Shown in pieces: positions 3,491 to 64,000 of a stretch of DNA of 64,000 bases (position 1 is the stretch's first letter; each line of letters begins with the position of its first letter). Origin of the DNA: Cryphonectria parasitica EP155 (Eukaryota; Ascomycota; Sordariomycetes; Diaporthales; Cryphonectriaceae); the NCBI RefSeq assembly GCF_011745365.1, contig NW_024468912.1, positions 496,001-560,000 on the forward strand. The letters run 5' to 3'. Position numbers and translations under genes: made by a program. The notes under the pieces are model-generated. The model made no database searches and was not told the DNA's origin. It saw only the letters and a program-made list of their open reading frames with translations.

Positions 3491-3702
3491 GTTTGAAACC
3501 TAGCCCTTTTAAAGGAGGCAATCCAGCGAGGCTTTCTATCTTTTTTTTTCCCTAGGAGCAGCGCTAATACTAAGCAGGAGCAGAGCAAATAATCAGACTA
3601 CTATTCTTTTCGAACCTTTGAGCCTTTAACCTTCAAGCCTTTAATCTTCGAATCTTTAACCTTCGAGCTTTCGATTTTCGAGCTTTCAAGCCTTGAATAC
3701 AG

Positions 3703-4315
3703 CGAGCAAGCAGTGCTGAGCAAGCAGTATGCAAGCAGCATGCGAGAAGCGTTCAGAAGAGATTCAGAGCATTCGAGTTGCTAAGCTAGAGCAAATAGCG
3801 AGCAAGCAGTATGCAAGCAGCGTGCAAGAAGCATTCAGAAGAGATTCAGAGCATTCGAGTTGCTAAGCTAGAGCAAACAGCGAGCAAGCAGTATGCAAGC
3901 AGCATGCAAGAAGCGTTTAGAAGAGATTCAGAGCATTCGAGTTGCTAAGCTAGAGCATACAGCGAGCAAGCAGTATCGAGCAAGCAGTATGCAAGCAGTA
4001 TGCGAGAAGCATTCAGAAGAGATTCAGAGCATTCAAGTTGCTAAGCTAGAGTATATAGCGAGCAAGCAGTGTTGAGTAAGCAGTATGCAAGCAGCATGCA
4101 AGAAGCATTCAGAAGAGATTCAGAGCATTCGAGTTGCTAAGCTAGAGCAAACAGCAAGCAAGCAGTATGCAAGCAGCATGCAAGAAGCATTCAGAAGAGA
4201 TTCAGAGCATTCGAGTTGCTAAGCTAGAGCAAATAGCAAGCAAGCAGTATGCAAGCAGCATGCGAGAAGTGTTCAGAAGAGATTCAGAGCATTCGAGTTG
4301 CTAAGCTAGAACAAA
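3703..4315. repeat. Minisatellite 1 in K, about 82-bp unit
   Basis: About seven tandem copies of a unit containing AGCAAGCAGTATGCAAGCAG, then CATTCAGAAGAGATTCAGAG and CATTCGAGTTGCTAAGCTAG. Unit starts at 3801, 3883 and 3965 are 82 bp apart. Because 82 is not a multiple of 3, the short open frame at 3893-4075 cannot persist through the array and is not taken as a gene. Confidence 0.85.
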
Positions 4316-4700
4316 GTATGTTCTTCGCTATTCAAGCAAGAGAGCAGAGTAAGCAAGCAGTAGATCTGAGTATCTTCTATTTTCGAGAGTATGTTCTTCG
4401 TTATTCGAGTGAAAGAGCAGAGTAAGCAAGCAATAGATCTGAGTATTTTCTGTTTTCGAGAATGTATTCTTCGCTATTCGAGCAAAAGAGCAGAGTGAGC
4501 AAGCAGTAGATCTGAGTATCTTCTGTTTTCGAGAGTATATTCTTTGCTATTTGAGCGAGAGAGCAGAGTAAGTAAGCAGTAGATCTGAGTATCTTCTGTT
4601 TTCAAGAGTATATTCTTTGCTATTCGAGCGAGAGAGCAGAGTAAGTAAGTAGTAGATCTGAGTATCTTCTGTTTTCAAGAGTATGCTCTTTGCTATTTGA
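4316..4700. repeat. Minisatellite 2 in K, about 73-bp unit
   Basis: Five to six tandem copies containing GTATGTTCTTCGCTATTCGA, then AGAGCAGAGTAAGCAAGCAG and TAGATCTGAGTATCTTCTG. Unit starts fall near 4316, 4389 and 4461. It directly abuts minisatellite 1. Confidence 0.8.
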
Positions 4701-5099
4701 GTGAGAGTGCAGAGCTGAAGCGGAGTATTTGCTTAGCAACTGAAGTTGCTTGGATATTAAGTTGCAAACTAATTATTCTTCTGCGTTTAGTAGTGAAGCG
4801 AAATGTAGTAATAGCTTTAGAGTTGCTAGAGAGCAACTTTCAAGATGGAAAGCTATAATTATCTGTTATAGCTGCAGGGATGCTGTTCTGGATGCTGAGC
4901 TTCTTAGCTACAAATCAAGTTCCTGGTAGAAGGCTTGCAATCTATATCAAATAGCTTTAAGTTCTGAAGAGTGCTTGGATAAAGCGCTGAGGGAATAGCG
5001 ACTAAGCAGCGTATATAGCACGGATATTGCATTCGGAAAACTTATATCTGGAATGTGATTAAAAAGAGATTTTTTTTTTACAGGCTTTGGGGATGAAGC

Positions 5100-16892: not shown

Positions 16893-18557
16893 CTAATGCT
16901 AACCTCTTCTCTGTTCCTGTTTGCTTTCAAACTCTGCTTGAGTAGTAGCAGCAGCAGCAGTTCTCTTCTGATTCTGCATCCTCACTCAACAGATCCTTTT
17001 GCAGTTCGCTTCATATATATTCATCTTAATAGCATGATCGAATTCTGTTCAGTTCGGAGAACCTACTAAGAGCTTAATAGGATTAAAGCTATAAAGCTCA
17101 TTTCATAGAAGCATACGAAGCTTCTGAGGTTTATTAGGAAAACTGAAAAGCATGATGTTGCTGCTTCTCAGTCTCTAATGCAATAAAGCTTCAGTAGTAT
17201 ATTCAGGCTTAGCTGTTTGCTGCATTAATAGATTGATTATTAGTTCTGAATCGATAGGCGTTTCTTGAGATGAAAAGGAGTAAGGATTAGTAGAAATTCC
17301 GGATAGAAATCGATTTAATTCTAAGCTAATACTATATCCTCTTAATAAATGCAAGATTAAGCTAGCTGAAGCTGTGCTCTCTTGAAACTATTGTTTTAAT
17401 GGAACTAGGCTGGATGCTTTACTCGCTCTGAAATCCTTTAGAGCAAAAGCTGATATATCTCTTCTTATTCTATCGAAATCGCCTTCAATAAACAGTTCAA
17501 ACAAATCTGCAACTTCTCTTATAAAGAAGATAATATTCAGCTTATAGATTATATTCAGTATCTTATCAGCTTTTACTTATACAGCCTTGTATTCTTAAAG
17601 TAAGATACTCCTTCTTAATAGCTGATTAGAATATTGTATATAGTTGCTATATTCCAGCTTATAGAAGAAAGCTTAATAGTATAAGCTCATTATAGCTATC
17701 TCTGCACCCCATTCTTCTACATTTTGTATAATCTCTTTATAATTAAGATAAAAAGCTTGCTTCTAGTCTGAATAGCTATTAGATGATTAGTAGAAATTAG
17801 TAGATTTCAGAATTTGAAAGCGAAATAGTTTGATTGCATAAAGCAGAGCTGTATTCGAATTATTATCCAGCAGCATAATTGGAACATTCTCGAAATCCCA
17901 ATCCTGATTAGCTCTAGCACTTCTGAGCTAACTATTCAGATAGTGCTTGCTTGTATAAGCTAGTAGGATATCGCTGAATTTGTATATAGCAATGTAAAAT
18001 CCTTTTTCAGTCTTTATATTGAGCTAAGACAGAGTATAAGCTAAAGTTGCTATATTAACTGAAAGGAGAATTCATAAGCGCTTTTATCTAGCTTCATATC
18101 TGAGCAGATTCTGCTTATTAAGAATATTAGAAAAGCTAGATAAATAAGCTATTAATAGAATATAAAAGCATTCCATCAAGAATACATCTTATTAGTTATA
18201 CTGAGCATAATAACGAAAAGCAGCTACAGCATGCTACAGACTAATATCTTGAGAAATTCCTATATCTAAGAATTCAGCCAGATTATAGATATTAAGAAGA
18301 TATCTGAAAGAATTAGCGCTAAAGATTGTAAGTAAGTATAACTTGCAAAGGAATAACTCTGGAAAGTACTTCTCAACGAGTTCTGCTGCTAGATGATTTT
18401 CTTTATTCCTTAGACTGAAGTAGAGCAGATAACTCTTAATCACTTCAGTTGGATACAGCGCTCTGGGAAAGATAGTTCGAAAGCAGTAAGCCTTGATTAT
18501 CCAGTTTCCTCAGCTATGCTGAACAGATGGGAACAGAGAGTACTTGAATTCGGCTAT
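16893..18557 (-). pseudogene. A copy of the 554-residue ORF, RIP-inactivated
   Basis: Exactly 1665 bp, as in G (58222-59886), and colinear throughout. The start ATG reads ATA (TAT at 18555-18557) and many Trp, Arg and Gln codons are stops. No indels were noticed, so the ORF was whole when this element inserted, and its presence is not peculiar to G. Confidence 0.8.
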
Positions 18558-19174
18558 TGCTGCTAAGTTGAAAGGAAAGTAAAAAGAAAAGAATAGCTTT
18601 GTTGGAAGATAAGCAATTATGAAAGAGATTTGCAAAGATATAAAATCAAGAAACTGAGAGGGTATTAACTAAGGAAGAAAGATAGAGAAGAATACAGCTT
18701 CAGCTTAAGAATCTATCGAGGAAGATAATATTATATAAGCAGAGCAATTAACAATTTGCTCTGATGTTAGTATATAGATCTGAAGCAGCGTTAATAAGAA
18801 AGAAAAAAAGTATATATATGCTTGAGAAAGGTAATTATAAAGAGATTGAAGAAGGAAGAAGAATAGCTAGCTGCAAGTATAGATAAAATAGCTAATTTAT
18901 CTTATCTAGCAATTATTCAAGTAATTCACTGCTTTTCATTTATTACAAAGCAAACAGCTTCACCCTTAGCTAGATAAAAGCTATTCAGCAATAAACTAAA
19001 TAGAAAGCATAGTAACTCAGTTGGATGTATTTATTATTCATTGCTATTTCATCAATCTTTAGCAAACTATTCAACAACCTCTCTCTCAGTTCACCTTGCC
19101 TTTCAATTCATCCTTCGCACAACAACTTCTCCTTCTATCAACCTTTCCTTGCTCAGCTCTGCAATATACTCAAG

Positions 19175-20409
19175 ATATCTCGAATTATTATCAATGCTAT
19201 TTTCTCTTTGCAGATAAATACTGCTTCTTAAAAGATTAACAAGATCTGAATCTAGTTTTCTTCTTTAATTCCTTCTTCTCAGAGCAGCAACTATTACTAG
19301 CTCAAGAATATTCATATTAACTTTCTTAATATTATAAACTTTAATATTATTAAGAAAGATCTTAGCTTAATATATACTTCTTAAGATATTTAAAGCAATA
19401 TTATATTTTGGAATAACTTACTGCTAAGCTCTAGCTTTGCTGCTTATTTTGCAAAGCTAAACAATAAGAATTTTATTAAACTAAATCCTATTATGATATA
19501 TAAAGCTAGTTGAAAGCTCTTTAGCAAGTATCTTACTTGCATCTTCTCCTGCCCTAAGCAAGTAAATTCTCTTCTCATTCAGTTCTATAATCAGTATAAT
19601 CTAATTTCTTGCAATTGCTGCTTCTATCAGTATGCTACTGCTTGCATGCTTATACAGGAACAGCAGATCAATATTAACTAGCCTTTCCTAGAATGTATTT
19701 CAATGAAGAGCTTCTTTAATGAAAAGTGTAATAACTGCATTTATTATGCAGAGTCTGAATATAATTATACTAAAGACTTTTCTTGTATCAAAGAGTGCAG
19801 TATACAAGTAAGATTTTCATTTCAATATCTTTGATTAGATTTAAGCATATACTAATTATTATTCTTTTTGCAGTATTAATACTTGTTTTACTAATTCAGC
19901 TCTTAATGTATAATTGAGATAGATTCTCAAGTTAACTTCAATACCGATGTTGAATATATTATCAAAGCTCAATACAAGCTTATATAGAATAAAAGTATTG
20001 TATATAATCAGATTAAATGAATTTCTTTTATATTAAGAAAATAATACTTATAAAATACTATGAGTTTTATAATCAATTATGATTGCAATGCTTAAGGAGA
20101 TCACTGCTAACTTTATCTGCATAGATTAGCAAGAAGAGTACTGCTTCTTCTGCTTTCAAGAAGGGAGTATCTGAATCTGAGCAGGCAGCTCTACAATCTA
20201 TATCTCGCAGCAAGAATAAAAGCAAGAGCAAAGCTGTAGTAAAATCTTATATTGAGAAATGAGCTAAGTTTGTTTAATCTCAAGATTCTTTCTCTGTTTT
20301 TAATAACGATTCTTCAGTAGATAATATGAATAATATAAATCTGAATAGAATAAGAAGAGAGCTATTGGATGATATTTATAGATATTCCAGTAATGAGAAT
20401 GATATATAA
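19175..20409 (+). pseudogene. A copy of the antisense two-intron Cys-rich gene
   Basis: 1235 bp, the same length as the intact gene in G (60504-61738). The start ATG is ATA at 19175-19177. Intron 1 still has GTAAGA (19808), a CTAATTA branch-like site and a TTTGCAG end. Coding TGG, CAG and CGA codons have become stops or otherwise changed. Confidence 0.8.
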
Positions 20410-57059: not shown

Positions 57060-57652
57060 GAAGCTCTGGTTGCACATTCTTGAATCAAAACAGATAGATA
57101 ATTAGTTTTCTTATCAATTACTTCTTGATTGTATGCAACAGATTATTCTTCTACAGTGCTAAGAGTATATAAGCATCTCTTCTATCTTTATTATAATTAT
57201 GCTTGATTAATAATGTATGAGAATATAAAGTTTCTTTAAGCATTACTATTTAATAGTATGCTATACTTGTATTCTTAAATATATATATTGAACTTAATAT
57301 AAGCATAATCTATTCTAGAAGCTTTATATAGGAACTATTTCAGTCTAATCATCTGCAGTTCCTTTATAAGCAATTCTATTCTTTTGAATTTGCTAAGAAC
57401 TGCTTGTTCTTCTAAGCTTGCTTCGCTGCTTTCTAAGCAAGCTTCTTAGCTTGCTTTTGCTTGTATTATTATTATTTCTAATCTTTCTTCTGTTGATGCT
57501 AGTTGCAAATCTTATTATTAATATAAATCATATAGAGTATTGTTTTGTACTGCTATTATTCTATCTTCTTATTTATATATTATATAGAGCAATCATCCGA
57601 TAGCTTGATGTATACATTGTAGTATTGCTTATTGAGAATCTTTCTGAAGCGG
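57060..57652 (-). pseudogene. F gag/protease-region remnant after D
   Basis: Resumes F with GAAGCTCTGGTTGCAC, the TSD copy plus the sequence interrupted at 42167. It matches E 52121-52715 and B1 26370-26985. It codes on the minus strand for the region around the protease and the Lys/Gln-rich segment upstream of it. It is cut by G at 57653. Confidence 0.75.
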
Positions 57653-57971
57653 TGAACCAGAACTAGGGCGCCGTCGCCCTCGAAAGAAAGAGGGACAAAC
57701 AGCTGCCGAAGCAATGGGCAAGGGCTCATGCAACCCAAGCGTGCCTGTACAGATGAGGACAGCAAACTAAGGCCACACGGGCGCAAGAACAGGGTGAAAA
57801 ACCTGTCTTAGACCTGTCCAAAGGGTTCAAAATTGAAAAGAAGAGAAAGGATGCTTGATTGTTGCTTATAGCTAAAGAATTTGAAAAGTGGGTGGTATCC
57901 TTTATATGTATGAGGACCCTTGACCCACTGTACTCCACGTCCCACGGACTACCACCCTGGCCACCACAACA
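57653..57971 (-). repeat. G left LTR (3' LTR)
   Basis: 319 bp, TGAACCAGAACTAGGGCG to CCACCACAACA (element strand TGTTGTGGTGG to TTCTGGTTCA). Nearly identical to C1 LTRs. Confidence 0.92.
57901..57906 (-). promoter_or_regulatory. TATA box in the family C LTR
   Basis: Minus-strand CATACATATAAAGG context. The TATAAA is conserved in A (about 16572-16577) and both C1 LTRs. It probably positions the element transcript start about 30 bp downstream. Confidence 0.5.
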
Positions 57972-57985
57972 GTCCTCCCCCAGCA
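57972..57985 (-). promoter_or_regulatory. Polypurine tract of G
   Basis: Element strand GCTGGGGGAGGAC directly precedes the 3' LTR TGTTGTGG. This fixes the element orientation as minus. Confidence 0.7.
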
Positions 57986-58221
57986 ACTTTCTTCCAAAGT
58001 TGCGACAAGTCCAATGGTGTGCCAGGTCTGATCAGAGGGAGATGAAGTAAAGAAATAAAGAATTCATCGCAAACTGCCAAAGGAAACACTGCAAACCGAA
58101 CCATCCCCCCAATTCAACCCTCATGCCTCTCCCTATCGCTTGAGCCATCATTCAAATCAACGCAGGAGTATCAGTATCCATCTTCAGTCCATTCGTAACA
58201 CGGGCACGACCTGGACAGATC

Positions 58222-59886
58222 CTAACGCTGACCTCTTCTCTGTCCCCGTCTGCTCTCAAACTCTGCTCGAGCAGCAGCAGCAGCAGCAGTTCTCTCCTGA
58301 TTCTGCATTCTCACTCGACGGATCCTTTCGCAGTCCGCTTCATACATATCCATCTTGATAGCATGATCGAACCCTGTCCAGTTCGGAGAACCCACTGAGG
58401 GCCTGATAGGGTTAAGGCTATGAAGCTCATTCCATAGAGGCACACGAGGCTCCTGAGGTCTATCAGGAAAACTGGGAGGCATGATGTTGCTGCTTCTCAG
58501 TCTCTGATGCAATGGGGCTTCAGTAGCACGTCCAGGCCTAGCTGTTTGCTGCATTGACAGGTTGATTGTCGGTCCTGGACCGACAGGCGTTCCTCGAGGT
58601 GAAGAGGAGTAAGGATCGGTAGGAGTTCCGGATGGGAGTCGACTTAACTCTGAGCTGATACTACGTCCTCTTGATGAACGCAAGATCGGGCCAGCTGGAG
58701 CTGTGCTCTCTCGGGACTGTTGTCTTGACGGAACTAGGCTGGGTGCCCTACTCGCTCTGAAATCCTCCAGGGCAAAGGCTGATATGTCCCTCCTCATCCT
58801 GTCGAGATCGCCTTCAATAGACAGTTCAGGCAAGTCTGCAACTCCTCCCACGAAGAAGGTAACATTCGGCTTGTAGGTTATGTTCAGTACCCTACCGGCT
58901 TCCACTTGTACAGCCTTGTATTCTTGAAGTGAGGCACTCCTTCTTAATGGCCGATCAGGATATCGCGTATAGTTGCTGTGTCCCAGCTCATAGGAGAAGG
59001 CCTGGCAGTGCAGGCTTGTCATAGCCATCTCCGCACCCCATTCTTCCACATTTTGTGCAGTTTCTCTATGGTTAAGATAGAGAGCTTGCCTCCAGTCTGG
59101 ACAGCCACTAGGTGATTGGTAGAAATCAGTAGATTCCAGGATTCGAAGGCGAAACAGTTCGATTGCATAGAGCAGAGCTGCATTCGAATCGTTATCCAGC
59201 GGCGTAGTTGGAACATTCTCGAAATCCCAATCCCGATTGGCTCCAGCACTCCTGAGCTGACTGTTCAGATAGTGCTTGCTTGCATGAGCCAGTAGGGTAT
59301 CGCCGGATTTGTGCACAGCGATGTAAAATCCTTTTTCAGTCTTCATATCGAGCCAAGACAGAGCACAAGCTGAAGTCGCTGTATTGACTGAGAGGAGAAC
59401 CCATAGGCGCCTCTGTCTAGCCTCATGTCTGGGCAGATCCTGTTTATTGAGAATATCAGGAGAGCCAGGTGGATGGGCTATCGATGGAACACGAAGGCAT
59501 CCCATCAAGAATACGTCTTGTTGATTGTACTGAGCGTAATGACGAAAGGCAGCCACAGCGTGCTGCGGACCAATATCTTGAGGGACTCCTGCATCTAAGA
59601 ATCCGACCAGATCATAGATATCGAGAAGGTGTCTGGAAGGATTGGCGCCGAAGATCGTGGGCAAGTACGACTTGCGAGGGGGTAACCCTGGGAAGTACTT
59701 CTCGACGAGTCCTGCTGCCAGATGATTTTCTTCGTCCCTTAGACTGAAGTAGGGCGGACGACTCTTGATCACTTCAGTTGGGTACGGCGCTCTGGGAAAG
59801 ACAGTCCGAAAGCAGTAGGCCTTGGTCATCCAGTCCCCTCGGCTATGCTGGACAGGTGGGAACAGAGAGTACTTGAATTCGGCCAT
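58222..59886 (-). CDS. Retrotransposon accessory ORF, 554 aa, unknown function (possible degenerate Ulp1-like fold)
   Basis: Intact single-exon frame from ATG (59884-59886) to TAG (58222-58224), in pol orientation, between the antisense gene and the 3' LTR. No signal peptide or membrane segment, so not an envelope protein. The N-terminal 330 residues look globular. The C-terminal third is Ser/Pro/Arg-rich and low-complexity (about 385-460) and ends in a basic Ala/Arg-rich helix (about 515-554). Residues about 155-250 resemble the outline of a Ulp1/C48 SUMO-protease core: LWVLLSVN, then LSWLDM, then DWDFENVPTTPLDNDSNAAL. The expected catalytic His and Cys (HW..., DCG) are absent. This is a weak, by-eye resemblance. 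Copy A has the same 1665 bp under RIP decay. It shares a 617-bp head-to-head intergenic region with the antisense gene, so it may have its own promoter. Confidence 0.75.
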   Translation of the reverse strand: MAEFKYSLFPPVQHSRGDWMTKAYCFRTVFPRAPYPTEVIKSRPPYFSLRDEENHLAAGLVEKYFPGLPPRKSYLPTIFGANPSRHLLDIYDLVGFLDAGVPQDIGPQHAVAAFRHYAQYNQQDVFLMGCLRVPSIAHPPGSPDILNKQDLPRHEARQRRLWVLLSVNTATSACALSWLDMKTEKGFYIAVHKSGDTLLAHASKHYLNSQLRSAGANRDWDFENVPTTPLDNDSNAALLYAIELFRLRILESTDFYQSPSGCPDWRQALYLNHRETAQNVEEWGAEMAMTSLHCQAFSYELGHSNYTRYPDRPLRRSASLQEYKAVQVEAGRVLNITYKPNVTFFVGGVADLPELSIEGDLDRMRRDISAFALEDFRASRAPSLVPSRQQSRESTAPAGPILRSSRGRSISSELSRLPSGTPTDPYSSSPRGTPVGPGPTINLSMQQTARPGRATEAPLHQRLRSSNIMPPSFPDRPQEPRVPLWNELHSLNPIRPSVGSPNWTGFDHAIKMDMYEADCERIRRVRMQNQERTAAAAAARAEFESRRGQRRGQR

Positions 59887-60503
59887 TGCTGCTGAGTCGA
59901 AAGGAAAGTGAAAAGGGAAGAACGGCTTTGTCGGAAGGTGGGCAATTGCGAGAGGGGTTTGCGAAGGTGTAAAGTCAAGGGACCGAGAGGGTGTTGACTG
60001 AGGAAGAAAGGTAGAGAAGAATGCAGCTTCAGCCTGAGGATCTGTCGAGGAAGGTGATGTTATGTAAGCAGAGCAGTTGACAATTTGCTCTGATGTCGGT
60101 GTACAGGTCTGGGGCAGCGTTGACGAGGAAGAAAAAGGGTGTGTGTATGCTCGAGAAAGGTGGTTGTGAAGAGGTTGAAGGAGGAAGAAGAATAGCTGGC
60201 TGCGAGTGTGGATGGAATGGCCAATTTATCTTGTCTGGCAACTACCCAAGTGATTCACTGCTTTCCGTTTGTCACAAGGCAAACAGCTTCACCCTTGGCC
60301 AGGTAGGAGCTGTCCAGCAACAGACTGGATAGAAGGTGTGGTGACTCAGTTGGGTGTGTTTGTTACCCATTGCCATCTCATCAATCTTCAGCAAACTGTT
60401 CAACAATCTCTCCCTCAGTTCACCTTGCCTTTCAATTCATCCTTCGCACAACAACTTCTCCTTCTGTCAACCTTCCCTTGCCCAGCTCTGCAACACACTC
60501 AAG
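59887..60503. promoter_or_regulatory. Head-to-head intergenic region of the two accessory genes
   Basis: 617 bp between the starts of the 554-codon ORF (minus) and the Cys-rich gene (plus). Stretches rich in C/T with CACAACAAC-type motifs precede the plus-strand ATG (about 60430-60500), as is common upstream of filamentous fungal starts. The spacing is retained in A (18558-19174, also 617 bp). Likely a bidirectional promoter; no defined element was identified. Confidence 0.45.
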
Positions 60504-61738
60504 ATGTCTCGAATCGTCACCGACGCTGTTTTCTCTTCGCGGGTAAACACCGCTCCTCAAGAGGTTGACAAGGTCTGGATCTGGTTTTCTTCTTCGGTTC
60601 CTCCTCCTCAGGGCAGCAACTACCACTGGCTCAAGGATGTCCATGTCGACTTCCTTGACGTTACAGACTTCAACACCATCAAGGGAGACCTTGGCTTGAC
60701 ATACGCTTCTTGGGATATCCAAGGCGATATCATGTTTTGGAACAACTCACTGCCAAGCCCTGGCTTTGCTGCTCATTTCGCAAGGCTGGACAATAAGGAT
60801 TCTATCAAACTGAATCCTATTGTGGTGTGTAAAGCCGGTTGGAAGCCCTTTGGCGAGTACCTTACCCGCATCTTCTCCCGCCCTGAGCGAGTAAATTCCC
60901 TCCTCGTTCAGTCCTATGGTCGGCGTAACCTAGTCCCTTGCGATTGCTGCTCCCGTCGGTACGCCACTGCTTGCATGCCTGTACAGGGGCAGCAGGTCAA
61001 CGTCAACTGGCCTTTCCTAGAATGCATCTCAATGGAGGGCTTCTTCAATGGGAAGTGCGGCAACTGCATTTATCATGCAGAGTCTGGGTGTGACTACACC
61101 AAAGACTTCCCTTGTGTCAAAGAGCGCAGTGCACGAGTAAGATTCCCATTCCGATGTCTTTGACCAGGTTTGAGCACACACTAATCATTGTCCTTCTCGC
61201 AGCGTCGGCACTCGTTTTACCAACTCGGCCCTCGACGTGTAATCGAGATAGATTCTCAAGTCAACTCCAATGCCGACGTCGAGCGTATTGTCAAAGCTCA
61301 ATACAAGCTCATGCGGGATAAAGGTATTGCGCATAACCAGATCAAATGGGTTCCTCTTGTGCCAAGGAAGTGGTACCCACAGGATACTGTGAGTCTCATA
61401 ATCAACTATGATTGCGATGCTCAAGAAGACCATTGCTAACTTTATCTGCACAGATCGGCAAGAAGAGTACTGCTCCTTCTGCTCCCAAGAAGGGAGTATC
61501 TGGGTCTGGGCAGGCAGCTCCACGACCTGTATCTCGTGGCAAGGATAAAGGCAAGGGCAAGGCTGTAGTAGGATCTCGTGTCGAGAAACGAGCCAAGTCC
61601 GTTCAATCTCAAGGTTCTTCCTCTGTTTTTGACGACGATTCTTCAGCGGATGATACGGATGACATGGATCTGGACAGGACGAGGAGAGAGCCATCGGATG
61701 ACATTTACGGGTATTCCGGTGATGAGGATGATGTGTAA
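60504..61738 (+). CDS. Antisense spliced Cys-rich accessory gene of the retrotransposon (367 aa)
   Basis: Three exons, 60504-61136, 61203-61388 and 61454-61738 (211 + 62 + 95 codons, all phase 0). Intron 1 (66 bp) has GTAAGA, a CTAATC branch site and CGCAG; intron 2 (65 bp) has GTGAGT, GCTAAC and CACAG. The product begins MSRIVTDAVFSSRVNTAP. Residues about 150-205 carry a Cys cluster: CDCCSRRYATAC, then LEC, GKCGNC, GCDY and FPC, suggesting zinc binding. After that come a basic Lys/Gly/Ala/Pro-rich linker (about 274-320, nuclear-localisation-like) and an acidic tail (DDDSSADDTDDMDLD). No family recognised; the layout suits a nuclear DNA- or RNA-binding regulator (inference). It runs opposite to pol, convergent with it across a 286-bp spacer. 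The same gene, RIP-mutated, is in A. Confidence 0.8.
61137..61202 (+). other. Intron 1 of the antisense accessory gene
   Basis: GT...AG intron of 66 bp with GTAAGA donor, CTAATC branch-like site 19 bp from the end, and CGCAG acceptor. Splice signals are legible in the decayed copy at 19808-19873. Confidence 0.8.
61389..61453 (+). other. Intron 2 of the antisense accessory gene
   Basis: 65 bp, GTGAGT donor, GCTAAC branch site, TGCACAG acceptor. Removing it joins exons in frame and avoids the stop read at 61437-61439. Confidence 0.8.
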
Positions 61739-62024
61739 AAGTAAGGGGTTTCCATAGGTTGCAGTGTTTCTTCGGCGCTCTGCATTTTTCATGCGTTGCA
61801 TTCCAATATACTGCAATTTTTGAACAACGAAAATGGCCTCAGAGCTGGTCAACATGCTCTGTGCCGGGTGCTTTGAAATTTTTAGGTGGGTTTACAGTGT
61901 TCTGTGGCGAGTGGTAGCAGACGACACTTCGTCCCTCCTCCCCCAGCAAAACACACGAGATGGAATAGGAAAGACGAAAAGAAAACGTGTTTTGCGAACA
62001 AAAAGAAATATGGACAGAAAGAAA
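61739..62024. other. Convergent 3' spacer between the antisense gene and pol
   Basis: 286 bp holding both 3' UTRs. T-rich runs (for example ATTTTTCATGCG and GCAATTTTTG) could serve 3'-end formation on the plus strand. It is retained in A and in the deleted derivative C1 (about 28720-29075). No ORF. Confidence 0.5.
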
Positions 62025-64000
62025 TCAACCTCCCCCACGAGCTAGGAACGCTGATTTAGTTGGGATTGGTATAAACATCCCACTTCTATCTGCTTTCTCC
62101 TGTTCTCGCCTCTCCTTCTCTGCTGCCCGTGTGAAATGTTCACCGTCACCAACTCCATTTCCATCCTCAGCATCATCATCCGCTTCAGTTGCTAGATTGA
62201 CAGTCTCTGGATCAGGACTGGTCTGGCCAGGCGTGGGGTCGTGCTCGATGATGTCTGGAACCCAGAATGTGGCGTCGTCGCTTGAATCTGCTTCCTGAAC
62301 TTCGAGGATATTGTTGTCTGGTTCCCCCCGCCAGGGAGCTCTCATCGAATCCAGCTTTTCTGCCAATGGTTGGCCAGGTTGAAGCTCGACATCTTCTTCC
62401 CAGGGCATAGGCACCTCGGGTTCCCAAATGCCATCCATATTCCGCATGAACTTTTTGAGATTGGTAGCTGAATATGTGCCTTTTAGCAGAACTCCGTCTG
62501 TGGTCTTGAGCTCATAAGCATGTTTGTCTAGGACCTGAGCAATCAGGTATGGACCCTTCCACTTATAAGAGATCTTGGCATTGCGCGAGTGGCTCATTTT
62601 CCGGACGTGGTCATAGACAAGCACGAGATCTCCGACACTCAGTCGAGATTTTCGTACCAGACCCTGCGTTTGACTTTTGGCTGCGATCTTTTGACGGTAT
62701 GCCTGAACAGCTTCAATTGCCTTCTGCACATCATCTTCCTTGGCTGCGATCATCCTCAACCGCATTTCAAACGCTTCCTGAGGGGATTGGTCTTCGGTCC
62801 ATGTAAGAACTCTCCACGTCGGGATTTCAGTTTCAATTGGGATAAGCGGCTCCCAACCGAAAATCAAATAGAAGGGGCTGTATCCATGCGACTGGCGGAT
62901 CGTAGTCCTTTCAGCGAAGAGTGCGAGTCTCAAGTACTGCCTCCATCTCCAGGGTTGAGCATCAGCTAGCTTAGCAAGGGCACTTGCTAAGGAAAGATGA
63001 CCAGCTTCTACTTGTCCTTGGGCATGGGGATTGTAACTGGAGACCTGGACAAGCAGGATCCCAAGAGCTCTGATGGTCTTGGCCATCTCAGCCTTGTTTT
63101 CTGGTCCTCCGTCAACAGTAATTTTGAGAGGGCACCCGAACACAAGAATGATCTCTTCCAAAATGAACTTCCTCATTTCCGCAGCTGTAGCTTTCTTGAG
63201 GGGTCTTGCAAGCACATAGCCGGTCAGGTCACAGCGAGCCTCCGCAAGGTATCTGTAACCGCCATCCTCGGCCATGTGTTGAATGTCGATGCTGATCCTC
63301 GTGAAGGGTTGACTTGGAAGGGTCGGGATCACTCCTTCCTTCCACATCTTTGGATCGAACTTTGCACACTTCTCGCAACCCGAGACAGCATTGGCCACAT
63401 CTGTCCAGAGACCTCTCCAGTAGTAGAGTTGCTTGACACGAGCTACCGTAGAGTCTCGACCTCGATGTCCAAACTTGGCATGACATTCTCTGATGATTCG
63501 GCGACGAAGATCAGGATCATCTACTACCCGTCGGCGTGGGAGTTTCGCACCAGCGCGGCGCCACAGAGCCTGGTCAAGTACTTGATGCTTTAATGCCTCT
63601 ACCATGAAGTTCTTGCGATCCCTCTTGGAGAGTTTTGGTGGAATGATCCCGTGGCATAAGAACTCTGCATACCGTTTCGACTGTTCCGTCCACTGAAGAG
63701 TTGGATTTAGCAGTGGTACTAGGTCAGCTCCATCTGAGTTCACGCTGTTAAGCTGAGCATCACACCAGTCCTCAACATTGCCATCTTCGTCTTCCTTAGG
63801 TGGCGTTGAGTATGGAGGTCGAGAAAGGGCATCAGCCACAGGATTCTTTGACCCGGGAATGTGTTTGACAGTGAAGTCAAACATCTTGATCACTGCCACC
63901 CATCTGTTCAGGAGAGCACCGGGTATGTCGTTCATTCCTCCATTGAGTTGGTCCACCAGAACGCGAGCATCGGTTTCCAGAATGAAATGGCAACCATAGA
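62025..64000 (-). CDS. Ty3/gypsy pol: RNase H C-terminus and integrase (intact, 5' end outside window)
   Basis: Open minus-strand frame from the window edge to TGA at 62025-62027, over 650 codons. At the edge it reads the end of RNase H (ETDARVLVDQLNGG, HIPGSKNPVADALSRPP). Next is the integrase zinc region (ECHAKFGHRG...CEKCAKF), then the catalytic core with ISIDIQHM, ITVDGGPENK and QGQVEAGH supplying the D, D and E. The integrase C-terminal domain follows (YKWKGPYLIAQVLDKHAYEL). The last roughly 120 residues form an acidic, low-complexity tail (EADSSDDATFWVPDI, TEADDDAEDGNGVGDG) with no chromodomain, unlike family B. No premature stop. The true start of the polyprotein is further upstream, beyond the window. 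Confidence 0.92.
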   Translation of the reverse strand, partial: YGCHFILETDARVLVDQLNGGMNDIPGALLNRWVAVIKMFDFTVKHIPGSKNPVADALSRPPYSTPPKEDEDGNVEDWCDAQLNSVNSDGADLVPLLNPTLQWTEQSKRYAEFLCHGIIPPKLSKRDRKNFMVEALKHQVLDQALWRRAGAKLPRRRVVDDPDLRRRIIRECHAKFGHRGRDSTVARVKQLYYWRGLWTDVANAVSGCEKCAKFDPKMWKEGVIPTLPSQPFTRISIDIQHMAEDGGYRYLAEARCDLTGYVLARPLKKATAAEMRKFILEEIILVFGCPLKITVDGGPENKAEMAKTIRALGILLVQVSSYNPHAQGQVEAGHLSLASALAKLADAQPWRWRQYLRLALFAERTTIRQSHGYSPFYLIFGWEPLIPIETEIPTWRVLTWTEDQSPQEAFEMRLRMIAAKEDDVQKAIEAVQAYRQKIAAKSQTQGLVRKSRLSVGDLVLVYDHVRKMSHSRNAKISYKWKGPYLIAQVLDKHAYELKTTDGVLLKGTYSATNLKKFMRNMDGIWEPEVPMPWEEDVELQPGQPLAEKLDSMRAPWRGEPDNNILEVQEADSSDDATFWVPDIIEHDPTPGQTSPDPETVNLATEADDDAEDGNGVGDGEHFTRAAEKERREQEKADRSGMFIPIPTKSAFLARGGG

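What the first reader, a model, noticed from the sequence alone, without database searches (positions are those of the whole stretch)
58222..61738. Divergent accessory gene pair carried inside a Ty3/gypsy retrotransposon
Between integrase and 3' LTR, element G carries two intact genes arranged head-to-head: a 554-codon sense ORF and a 367-codon, three-exon antisense gene, sharing a 617-bp intergenic region. The same pair, at identical length and spacing, is in copy A (16893-20409) under RIP decay, so it is a fixed part of the family and not a chance capture in one copy. Neither protein has membrane features of an env. Extra ORFs 3' of pol are known in some plant and fungal gypsy elements, but I do not recognise this pair.
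Basis: partly seen in the sequence, partly recalled or inferred. Interest (0 to 1): 0.78.

Follow-up and report, generated by a model that had tools for sequence, protein, structure and literature searches.

The report
Two-gene cassette in fungal retrotransposon
A fungal jumping element carries, besides its copying genes, a fixed pair of back-to-back extra genes, one of them on the opposite strand with introns intact and a cysteine-rich domain also found elsewhere in the host genome; extra genes of this sort are known, but this pair looks like a new arrangement.

Summary
A 12.3-kb Ty3/gypsy element on the minus strand carries, between integrase and 3' LTR, an intronless 554-codon sense ORF (58222-59886) and a divergent three-exon, 367-codon gene (60504-61738) with a 617-bp spacer. 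The pair is fixed in the family: six cassettes in this genome are identical over 3517 bp, all six in insertions with perfect 4-bp target duplications, and 40 of 40 scored places (87 candidates) are contiguous from pol into the antisense gene. The 20 decayed copies aligned keep layout and both introns.

The antisense protein holds a DUF3716 domain, found at 13 other places in the genome. The sense protein matches no family. A diverged sister element keeps the sense ORF and a remnant of the antisense gene, so the pair predates their split. A 14-bp copy of the polypurine tract sits just after pol, so the cassette lies between two such tracts.

Likely a regulatory accessory cassette with its own divergent promoter; function is inferred, not shown. 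Antisense accessory genes 3' of pol are known from plants and Botrytis Boty; this two-gene, intron-bearing DUF3716 version is a new variant.

The parts
57649..57652 (.). 4-bp target site duplication GCGG (outer flank of the 3' LTR)
   Evidence: GCGG on both sides of the element
57653..57972 (-). 3' LTR (TG...CA, about 320 bp)
   Evidence: 100% identical over 320 bp to the 5' LTR at L009 5841-6160
57973..57986 (-). terminal polypurine tract TTGCTGGGGGAGGA next to the 3' LTR
   Evidence: position and sequence; in the sister element only G-to-A changes
58222..59886 (-). sense accessory ORF, 554 aa, intronless, no known family
   Evidence: third-position bias in one class of changes against the sister element
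59887..60503 (.). 617-bp divergent spacer, presumed bidirectional promoter
   Evidence: C+T 0.62-0.72 in the 50-nt bins of the 300 nt before the sense ATG and of the last 150 nt before the antisense ATG; no TATA pattern found, no shuffle control run; promoter function inferred
60504..61136 (+). antisense gene exon 1 (211 codons)
60900..61085 (+). DUF3716 (PF12511) domain, residues 133-194
   Evidence: 25.7 bits in the 219-aa exon-1 frame, 23.9 in the spliced protein, cut-off 22
61137..61202 (+). intron 1 of the antisense gene
   Evidence: GT-AG, frame closes; kept in the 20 decayed copies aligned
61203..61388 (+). antisense gene exon 2
61389..61453 (+). intron 2 of the antisense gene
   Evidence: GT-AG; kept in the 20 decayed copies aligned
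61454..61738 (+). antisense gene exon 3, ends in an acidic tail
   Evidence: remnant in the sister element
61936..61949 (-). internal copy of the polypurine tract, 75 bp after the pol ORF
   Evidence: exact 14-bp repeat of 57973-57986; in the sister element only G-to-A changes
62025..63956 (-). 3' part of pol: integrase zinc-binding and core domains
   Evidence: Integrase_H2C2 58.7 bits (cut-off 25.5); rve E 3e-6 but 27.8 bits, below its cut-off 32.6
16893..20409 (.). decayed copy A of the same 3517-bp cassette
   Evidence: 80% identity; 697 C-to-T/G-to-A changes, 11 reverse transitions, 0 transversions, no indel (L045)

Best explanation
A Ty3/gypsy retrotransposon with a built-in two-gene accessory cassette. 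SHOWN: the cassette is a fixed part of the element, moves with it, and predates a diverged sister element. SHOWN: its antisense gene keeps two predicted introns through RNA-mediated copying. ESTABLISHED LOGIC: the genomic RNA carries that gene as reverse complement, so its splice sites are not recognised; a spliced gene can persist in a retrotransposon in this orientation. INFERRED: the 617-bp spacer is a divergent promoter that expresses both genes independently of the LTR. INFERRED: the antisense product (DUF3716 cysteine domain, basic middle, acidic tail) is a nuclear DNA- or chromatin-binding regulator of element or host transcription, comparable in role to the nuclear protein of plant Grande gene23. 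INFERRED: the sense product is a fast-evolving partner acting with Gag.
For: Fixation and mobility. Introns kept in the 20 decayed copies aligned. DUF3716 domain above cut-off, also at 13 non-cassette places in the genome. Net charge +4 and +8 in residues 201-250 and 251-300, then 0, then -6 at the end; no membrane segment. Pyrimidine-rich leaders, purine at -3 before both ATGs. Sense ORF against the sister: reverse transitions 28/21/70 by codon position (p 4e-7 after correction for base content), and of five indels (1, 3, 3, 33 and 16 bp, the last near the 3' end) three are multiples of three. Both pol-deleted derivatives seen keep the gag frame and the sense ORF.
Against: No transcript, protein or localisation data. 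Transversions in the sense ORF show no codon-position bias (100/87/110, p 0.26), so constraint is weak or the protein changes fast. The sister has lost most of the antisense gene, so that gene is dispensable at least in a non-autonomous copy; the sister's sense frame also has a 1-bp shift. The sister is one decayed copy. The family copies are too young to test selection among themselves. No TATA pattern was found in the spacer.
Confidence: 0.5

Rival explanations
1. The antisense transcription unit matters as RNA, not protein: transcripts from the spacer pair with genomic RNA, make double-stranded RNA and limit copy number; the proteins are secondary.
For: The antisense gene lies wholly within the region that genomic RNA must cross. 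A dsRNA role is proposed for antisense accessory ORFs in a review (PMC7264820, part 2).
Against: The antisense frame is open over three exons with consensus splice sites and a recognisable protein domain, which an RNA-only role would not need.
Confidence: 0.2
2. Passenger genes: a host divergent gene pair was picked up once, is carried neutrally, and is seen intact only because the active copies are very recent.
For: DUF3716 occurs at 13 non-cassette places in the genome. The 20 decayed copies compared show 0-7 transversions over 3517 bp, so the family is young. The sister has a large deletion in the antisense gene. Sense-ORF transversions show no codon-position bias.
Against: The pair predates the sister split (sense ORF 0.19 transversions per site), yet reverse transitions in the sense frame fall mainly at third positions, and both genes are intact in the six recent copies. 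The rows found for the sense ORF look like element copies or the sister; no host relative was recognised.
Confidence: 0.22
3. The sense ORF is an env-like or additional structural (Gag-like) protein.
For: Position 3' of pol in sense orientation, as for env-like ORFs; retained together with the gag frame in both pol-deleted derivatives.
Against: No 19-residue hydropathy window above 1.6; no similarity to the element's own gag frame; no Pfam match and no credible PDB match.
Confidence: 0.06

Closest known systems
Boty-like elements of Botrytis cinerea with antisense gene brtn (Zhao et al. 2011, Virology 417:248; not held, title seen in reference lists)
   Same: Fungal gypsy element with an additional antisense gene, placed between pol and 3' LTR by the review PMC7264820
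   Different: One antisense gene is named in the passages seen; the Boty-like copy in PMC4227169 has a chromodomain, and a solo LTR there has a 5-bp TSD (passage). Here: two divergent genes, no chromodomain found, 4-bp TSDs, spliced DUF3716 gene. Homology of brtn to this gene could not be tested.
Maize Grande (gene23), rice RIRE2, PvRetro13
   Same: Antisense accessory ORF between pol and 3' LTR; Grande's product is nuclear and transcribed from its own promoter (PMC7264820, parts 1-2 of 3 read)
   Different: Plant elements; the parts read describe antisense genes without a DUF3716 domain and do not describe a divergent pair
Retand lineage of plants (PMC11963269, passages incl. parts of the abstract)
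   Same: Long pol-3'LTR region with antisense ORFs, in 97% of clusters with a TRP28 domain that probably binds DNA; sense ORFs there encode no known domain
   Different: TRP28 instead of DUF3716; the passages seen do not describe a spliced divergent pair
Other DUF3716 (PF12511) loci of this genome
   Same: Same Pfam domain; the stretch before the cysteines is alike by eye (LLVQ/LIVQ in L059, L060, L061; LFAQ in L058)
   Different: Direct pairwise matches are weak (tblastn E 0.04-0.42, none for L061). The element version has extra residues between the cysteine pairs, shared with a decayed relic at C3:8595-8876 (E 6e-5)

Membership tests
Ty3/gypsy LTR retrotransposon | paired LTRs (TG...CA) and target site duplication | tested here: met
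   LTRs 320 bp, identical; perfect 4-bp TSDs in 6 of 6 intact-cassette copies
Ty3/gypsy LTR retrotransposon | protease, then RT-RNase H, then integrase; RT closest to Ty3 | tested here: met
   Pfam order; best PDB matches 4ol8 E 4.9e-39 (Ty3 RT by recall) and 7q5b, Transposon Ty3-G Gag-Pol, E 1.2e-38
Ty3/gypsy LTR retrotransposon | gag domain | tested here: inconclusive
   the 1272-aa frame matched Pfam only in its protease part; gag is named from its position
Ty3/gypsy LTR retrotransposon | tRNA primer binding site | not tested
   sequence after the 5' LTR was printed but not compared with tRNAs
Chromovirus (Boty-like) | chromodomain after integrase | tested here: not met
   none found by Pfam at E up to 1; weak SH3_Tf2-1 only
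[quoted passage not shown]
   40 of 40 scored places contiguous, 87 candidates
Elements with antisense accessory ORF (aORF-3R) | antisense gene transcribed from its own promoter | not testable with these tools
   no RNA data; only sequence features
DUF3716 (PF12511) | score above the Pfam gathering cut-off | tested here: met
   25.7 and 23.9 bits against 22
Env-carrying element | transmembrane or fusion features | tested here: not met
   maximum 19-residue hydropathy 1.38 and 0.56; no dedicated TM or signal predictor was run
Ulp1/C48 peptidase (considered by eye) | profile similarity | tested here: not met
   hhalign against four host C48 peptides, probability 0.1%; no Pfam match

The most novel reading that the evidence does not exclude
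The cassette is a host-type divergent gene pair captured by a retrotransposon in one step through the polypurine tract, which was duplicated and now brackets it. The antisense orientation is what let a spliced gene survive RNA-mediated copying, and the retained internal tract serves as a second plus-strand start (a central-PPT analogue) for the lengthened 3' region. The element is thus a complex retrotransposon with an intron-bearing, DUF3716-type nuclear regulator.
Probability: 0.25. Interest if true: 0.72.

Novelty: new variant of a known kind. Interest (0 to 1): 0.5.

Why it matters
Antisense accessory genes have been found in plant and Botrytis elements without a known role (review PMC7264820). 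This element offers, in one genome, identical intact copies, dozens of decayed ones, a sister that lost most of the antisense gene, and pol-deleted derivatives, so gain, loss and retention of the genes can be compared. The antisense domain also occurs elsewhere in the host genome, which gives a concrete handle on function. The intron argument is general and testable: spliced genes should be found in LTR elements chiefly in antisense orientation.

Tried and rejected
Ulp1/C48-like protease idea for the sense ORF, from motifs seen by eye: hhalign against four of five host C48 hits gave probability 0.1%, and Pfam and PDB gave nothing; rejected as unsupported.

Structure prediction without an alignment gave mean pLDDT 32 and 31; no fold search was run on them.

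Protein database: the sense ORF found only a copy from this genome (7998 candidates scored), the antisense protein nothing (1010 candidates). A control with the RT found 196 proteins, including named Fusarium and Penicillium ones, so fungal proteins are held; but word-based sensitivity is limited, so these negatives are weak. Viral contigs: no relative of either.

Sense ORF as a relative of the gag frame or of the antisense protein: no similarity. The bacterial promoter scan does not apply to a fungus and is not used.

A first alignment of the sister misplaced the post-pol block and the spacer; those rows (post-pol, antisense, promoter) were dropped and the block redone piecewise. A second DUF3716-exon match at C6:3942645 (28%, E 2.5e-4) gave no hit when re-examined and is not used.
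Full report
WHAT IS THERE. The window is C4:496001-560000 of an unnamed 43.8-Mb genome in 17 contigs. An element lies on the minus strand. Its 3' LTR is 57653-57972; the partner LTR lies outside the window and is identical over 320 bp, so the element is about 12.3 kb. Reading along the minus strand: LTR, a 1272-aa frame (called gag by position; its end matches aspartyl protease), RT-RNase H, integrase, the antisense gene, the 617-bp spacer, the sense ORF, a polypurine tract, LTR. The best PDB matches of the RT include Ty3-G Gag-Pol (E 1.2e-38).

FIXED IN THE FAMILY. Of 40 DNA places scored (115 candidates), six match 3517/3517 bases at 100%. All six have perfect 4-bp target duplications: ATAG, GCAG, ATAG, CTAG, GCGG and ATAC. 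The C6 copy is flanked by what reads by eye as a decayed copy of the same sense ORF. A query spanning pol end and antisense exon 3 is unbroken in 40 of 40 scored places (87 candidates). Three integrase copies that seemed to lack the pair in the lists were read, and all three ran into antisense exon 3; others were not checked this way. The sense protein gives 80 match rows, fragments and one sister row included, six without stops. Antisense exon 1 gives 77 rows, six full-length without stops.

AGE AND DECAY. In 20 decayed copies aligned (of the 34 non-identical rows), C-to-T/G-to-A changes number 162-786 each, transversions 0-7, reverse transitions 3-17. Only L038 has a real indel (6 bp); L043 and L052 were fetched trimmed. 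The intron stretches are present in all 20. So these copies descend from one recent lineage, and none is a spliced retrocopy.

THE PROTEINS. The antisense protein has a DUF3716 domain (25.7 bits in the exon-1 frame, 23.9 in the spliced protein, cut-off 22). PF12511 matches 19 places in this genome: the six intact cassettes and 13 others, two of these with stops. Four of the other loci were compared; the stretch before the cysteines looks alike, but direct tblastn matches are weak (E 0.04-0.42, none for L061), so the kinship rests on the Pfam score. Net charge is +4 and +8 in residues 201-300, then 0, then -6 at the C-terminus. The sense protein has no Pfam match and no credible PDB match, and the protein database gave only a copy from this genome. 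Neither has a 19-residue hydropathy window above 1.6.

SISTER ELEMENT. At C10:30500-40000 (L010) a decayed relative has LTRs 80-83% identical, a gag frame abutting the pol tail with RT and most of the integrase missing, and a 37%-identical sense ORF. Its pol tail, post-pol region and the end of antisense exon 3 align; about 1.66 kb (59902-61558) is missing; then the sense ORF follows. The exon-3 remnant scores 156 against a maximum of 121 in 200 shuffles; the controls exon 1 (5 of 100 shuffles as good) and exon 2 (38 of 100) are at or near chance. So the antisense gene is ancestral and was lost there. Transversions per site are 0.008 in the pol tail, 0.047 in the LTR, 0.19 in the sense ORF and 0.17 in its 3' region, and about 0.085 in gag (197 of 2320 sites); they rise from the pol tail through the post-pol region into exon 3. 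The accessory region is the most diverged; whether by fast evolution or by recombination between families is not resolved. Coding constraint on the sense ORF: reverse transitions 28/21/70 by codon position (p 4e-7), but transversions 100/87/110 (p 0.26); for comparison gag transversions 59/42/96 (p 9e-6).

POL-DELETED INTACT COPY. At about C9:913975-923081 the first 1245 gag residues and the last 221 pol residues are 100% identical to the window's element, RT and most of the integrase are gone, and the cassette is intact. The gag frame runs out of frame after the junction. The junction is spanned in 1 of 40 places scored (114 candidates). Whether the deletion arose before or after insertion cannot be told.

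SECOND POLYPURINE TRACT. The 14 bases TTGCTGGGGGAGGA beside the 3' LTR recur exactly 75 bp after the pol ORF; it is the only perfect direct repeat of 14 or more bases reported in 57973-62030. Local alignment of the two 3' regions scored 28 against a maximum of 27 in 300 block shuffles, so the match is notable but not overwhelming. In the sister both copies differ only by G-to-A. It may be a scar of capture or a working second plus-strand start; neither is shown. Against capture of a whole host pair: no host relative of the sense ORF was recognised.

MECHANISM. Fixation, co-mobility, intron retention and ancestry are shown. That the antisense orientation protects the introns follows from established splicing logic. 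Divergent promoter activity rests on pyrimidine-rich leaders and a purine at -3 (A before the antisense ATG, G before the sense ATG), with no TATA pattern found, and is inferred. A nuclear regulatory role for the antisense protein and a Gag-linked role for the sense protein are inferences.

LITERATURE. [quoted passage not shown] PMC11963269 (passages) gives the Retand case. PMC4227169, PMC8365987 and PMC5987419 (passages) mention brtn. Passages of PMC3248453 and PMC2774666 mention additional domains or genes in general; a term search in PMC11540331 found nothing. No held paper names DUF3716. Searches listed no paper on such a pair in a fungal element, but only the top of long lists was shown (30 of 135, 20 of 22, 15 of 183, 15 of 503, 12 of 89), and most subscription papers are not held.

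Noticed in passing
20 decayed copies of 58222-61738 (L033-L052): The C-to-T decay has an unusual context: pooled over the copies, 0.47-0.62 of C mutate in ACA, CCA, TCA, ACC, CCC, TCC, ACG, CCG and TCG, but 0.01-0.20 when G precedes or T follows. This differs from the CpA > CpT > CpG > CpC order given for Neurospora RIP (passages).
   Followed up: partly
LTRs of the six intact-cassette copies (L013-L026): Two LTR haplotypes, three copies each, differing at 5 columns (3 substitutions, 2 indels), with the compared parts of both LTRs of a copy agreeing, although the 3517-bp cassette is identical in all six. Suggests recombination during reverse transcription.
   Followed up: partly
about C9:913975-923081 (L026, L003, L017): Recent pol-deleted, non-autonomous-looking copy with intact cassette and a perfect ATAC target duplication.
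   Followed up: partly
L011:8595-8876 (C3, near the contig end): Decayed relic resembling the antisense DUF3716 exon, with the same extra residues between the cysteine pairs; no gag, pol or sense ORF match in the 10 kb read.
   Followed up: partly
window 3615-4787: Tandem arrays with 82-bp and 73-bp spacing near the left end of the window.
   Followed up: no
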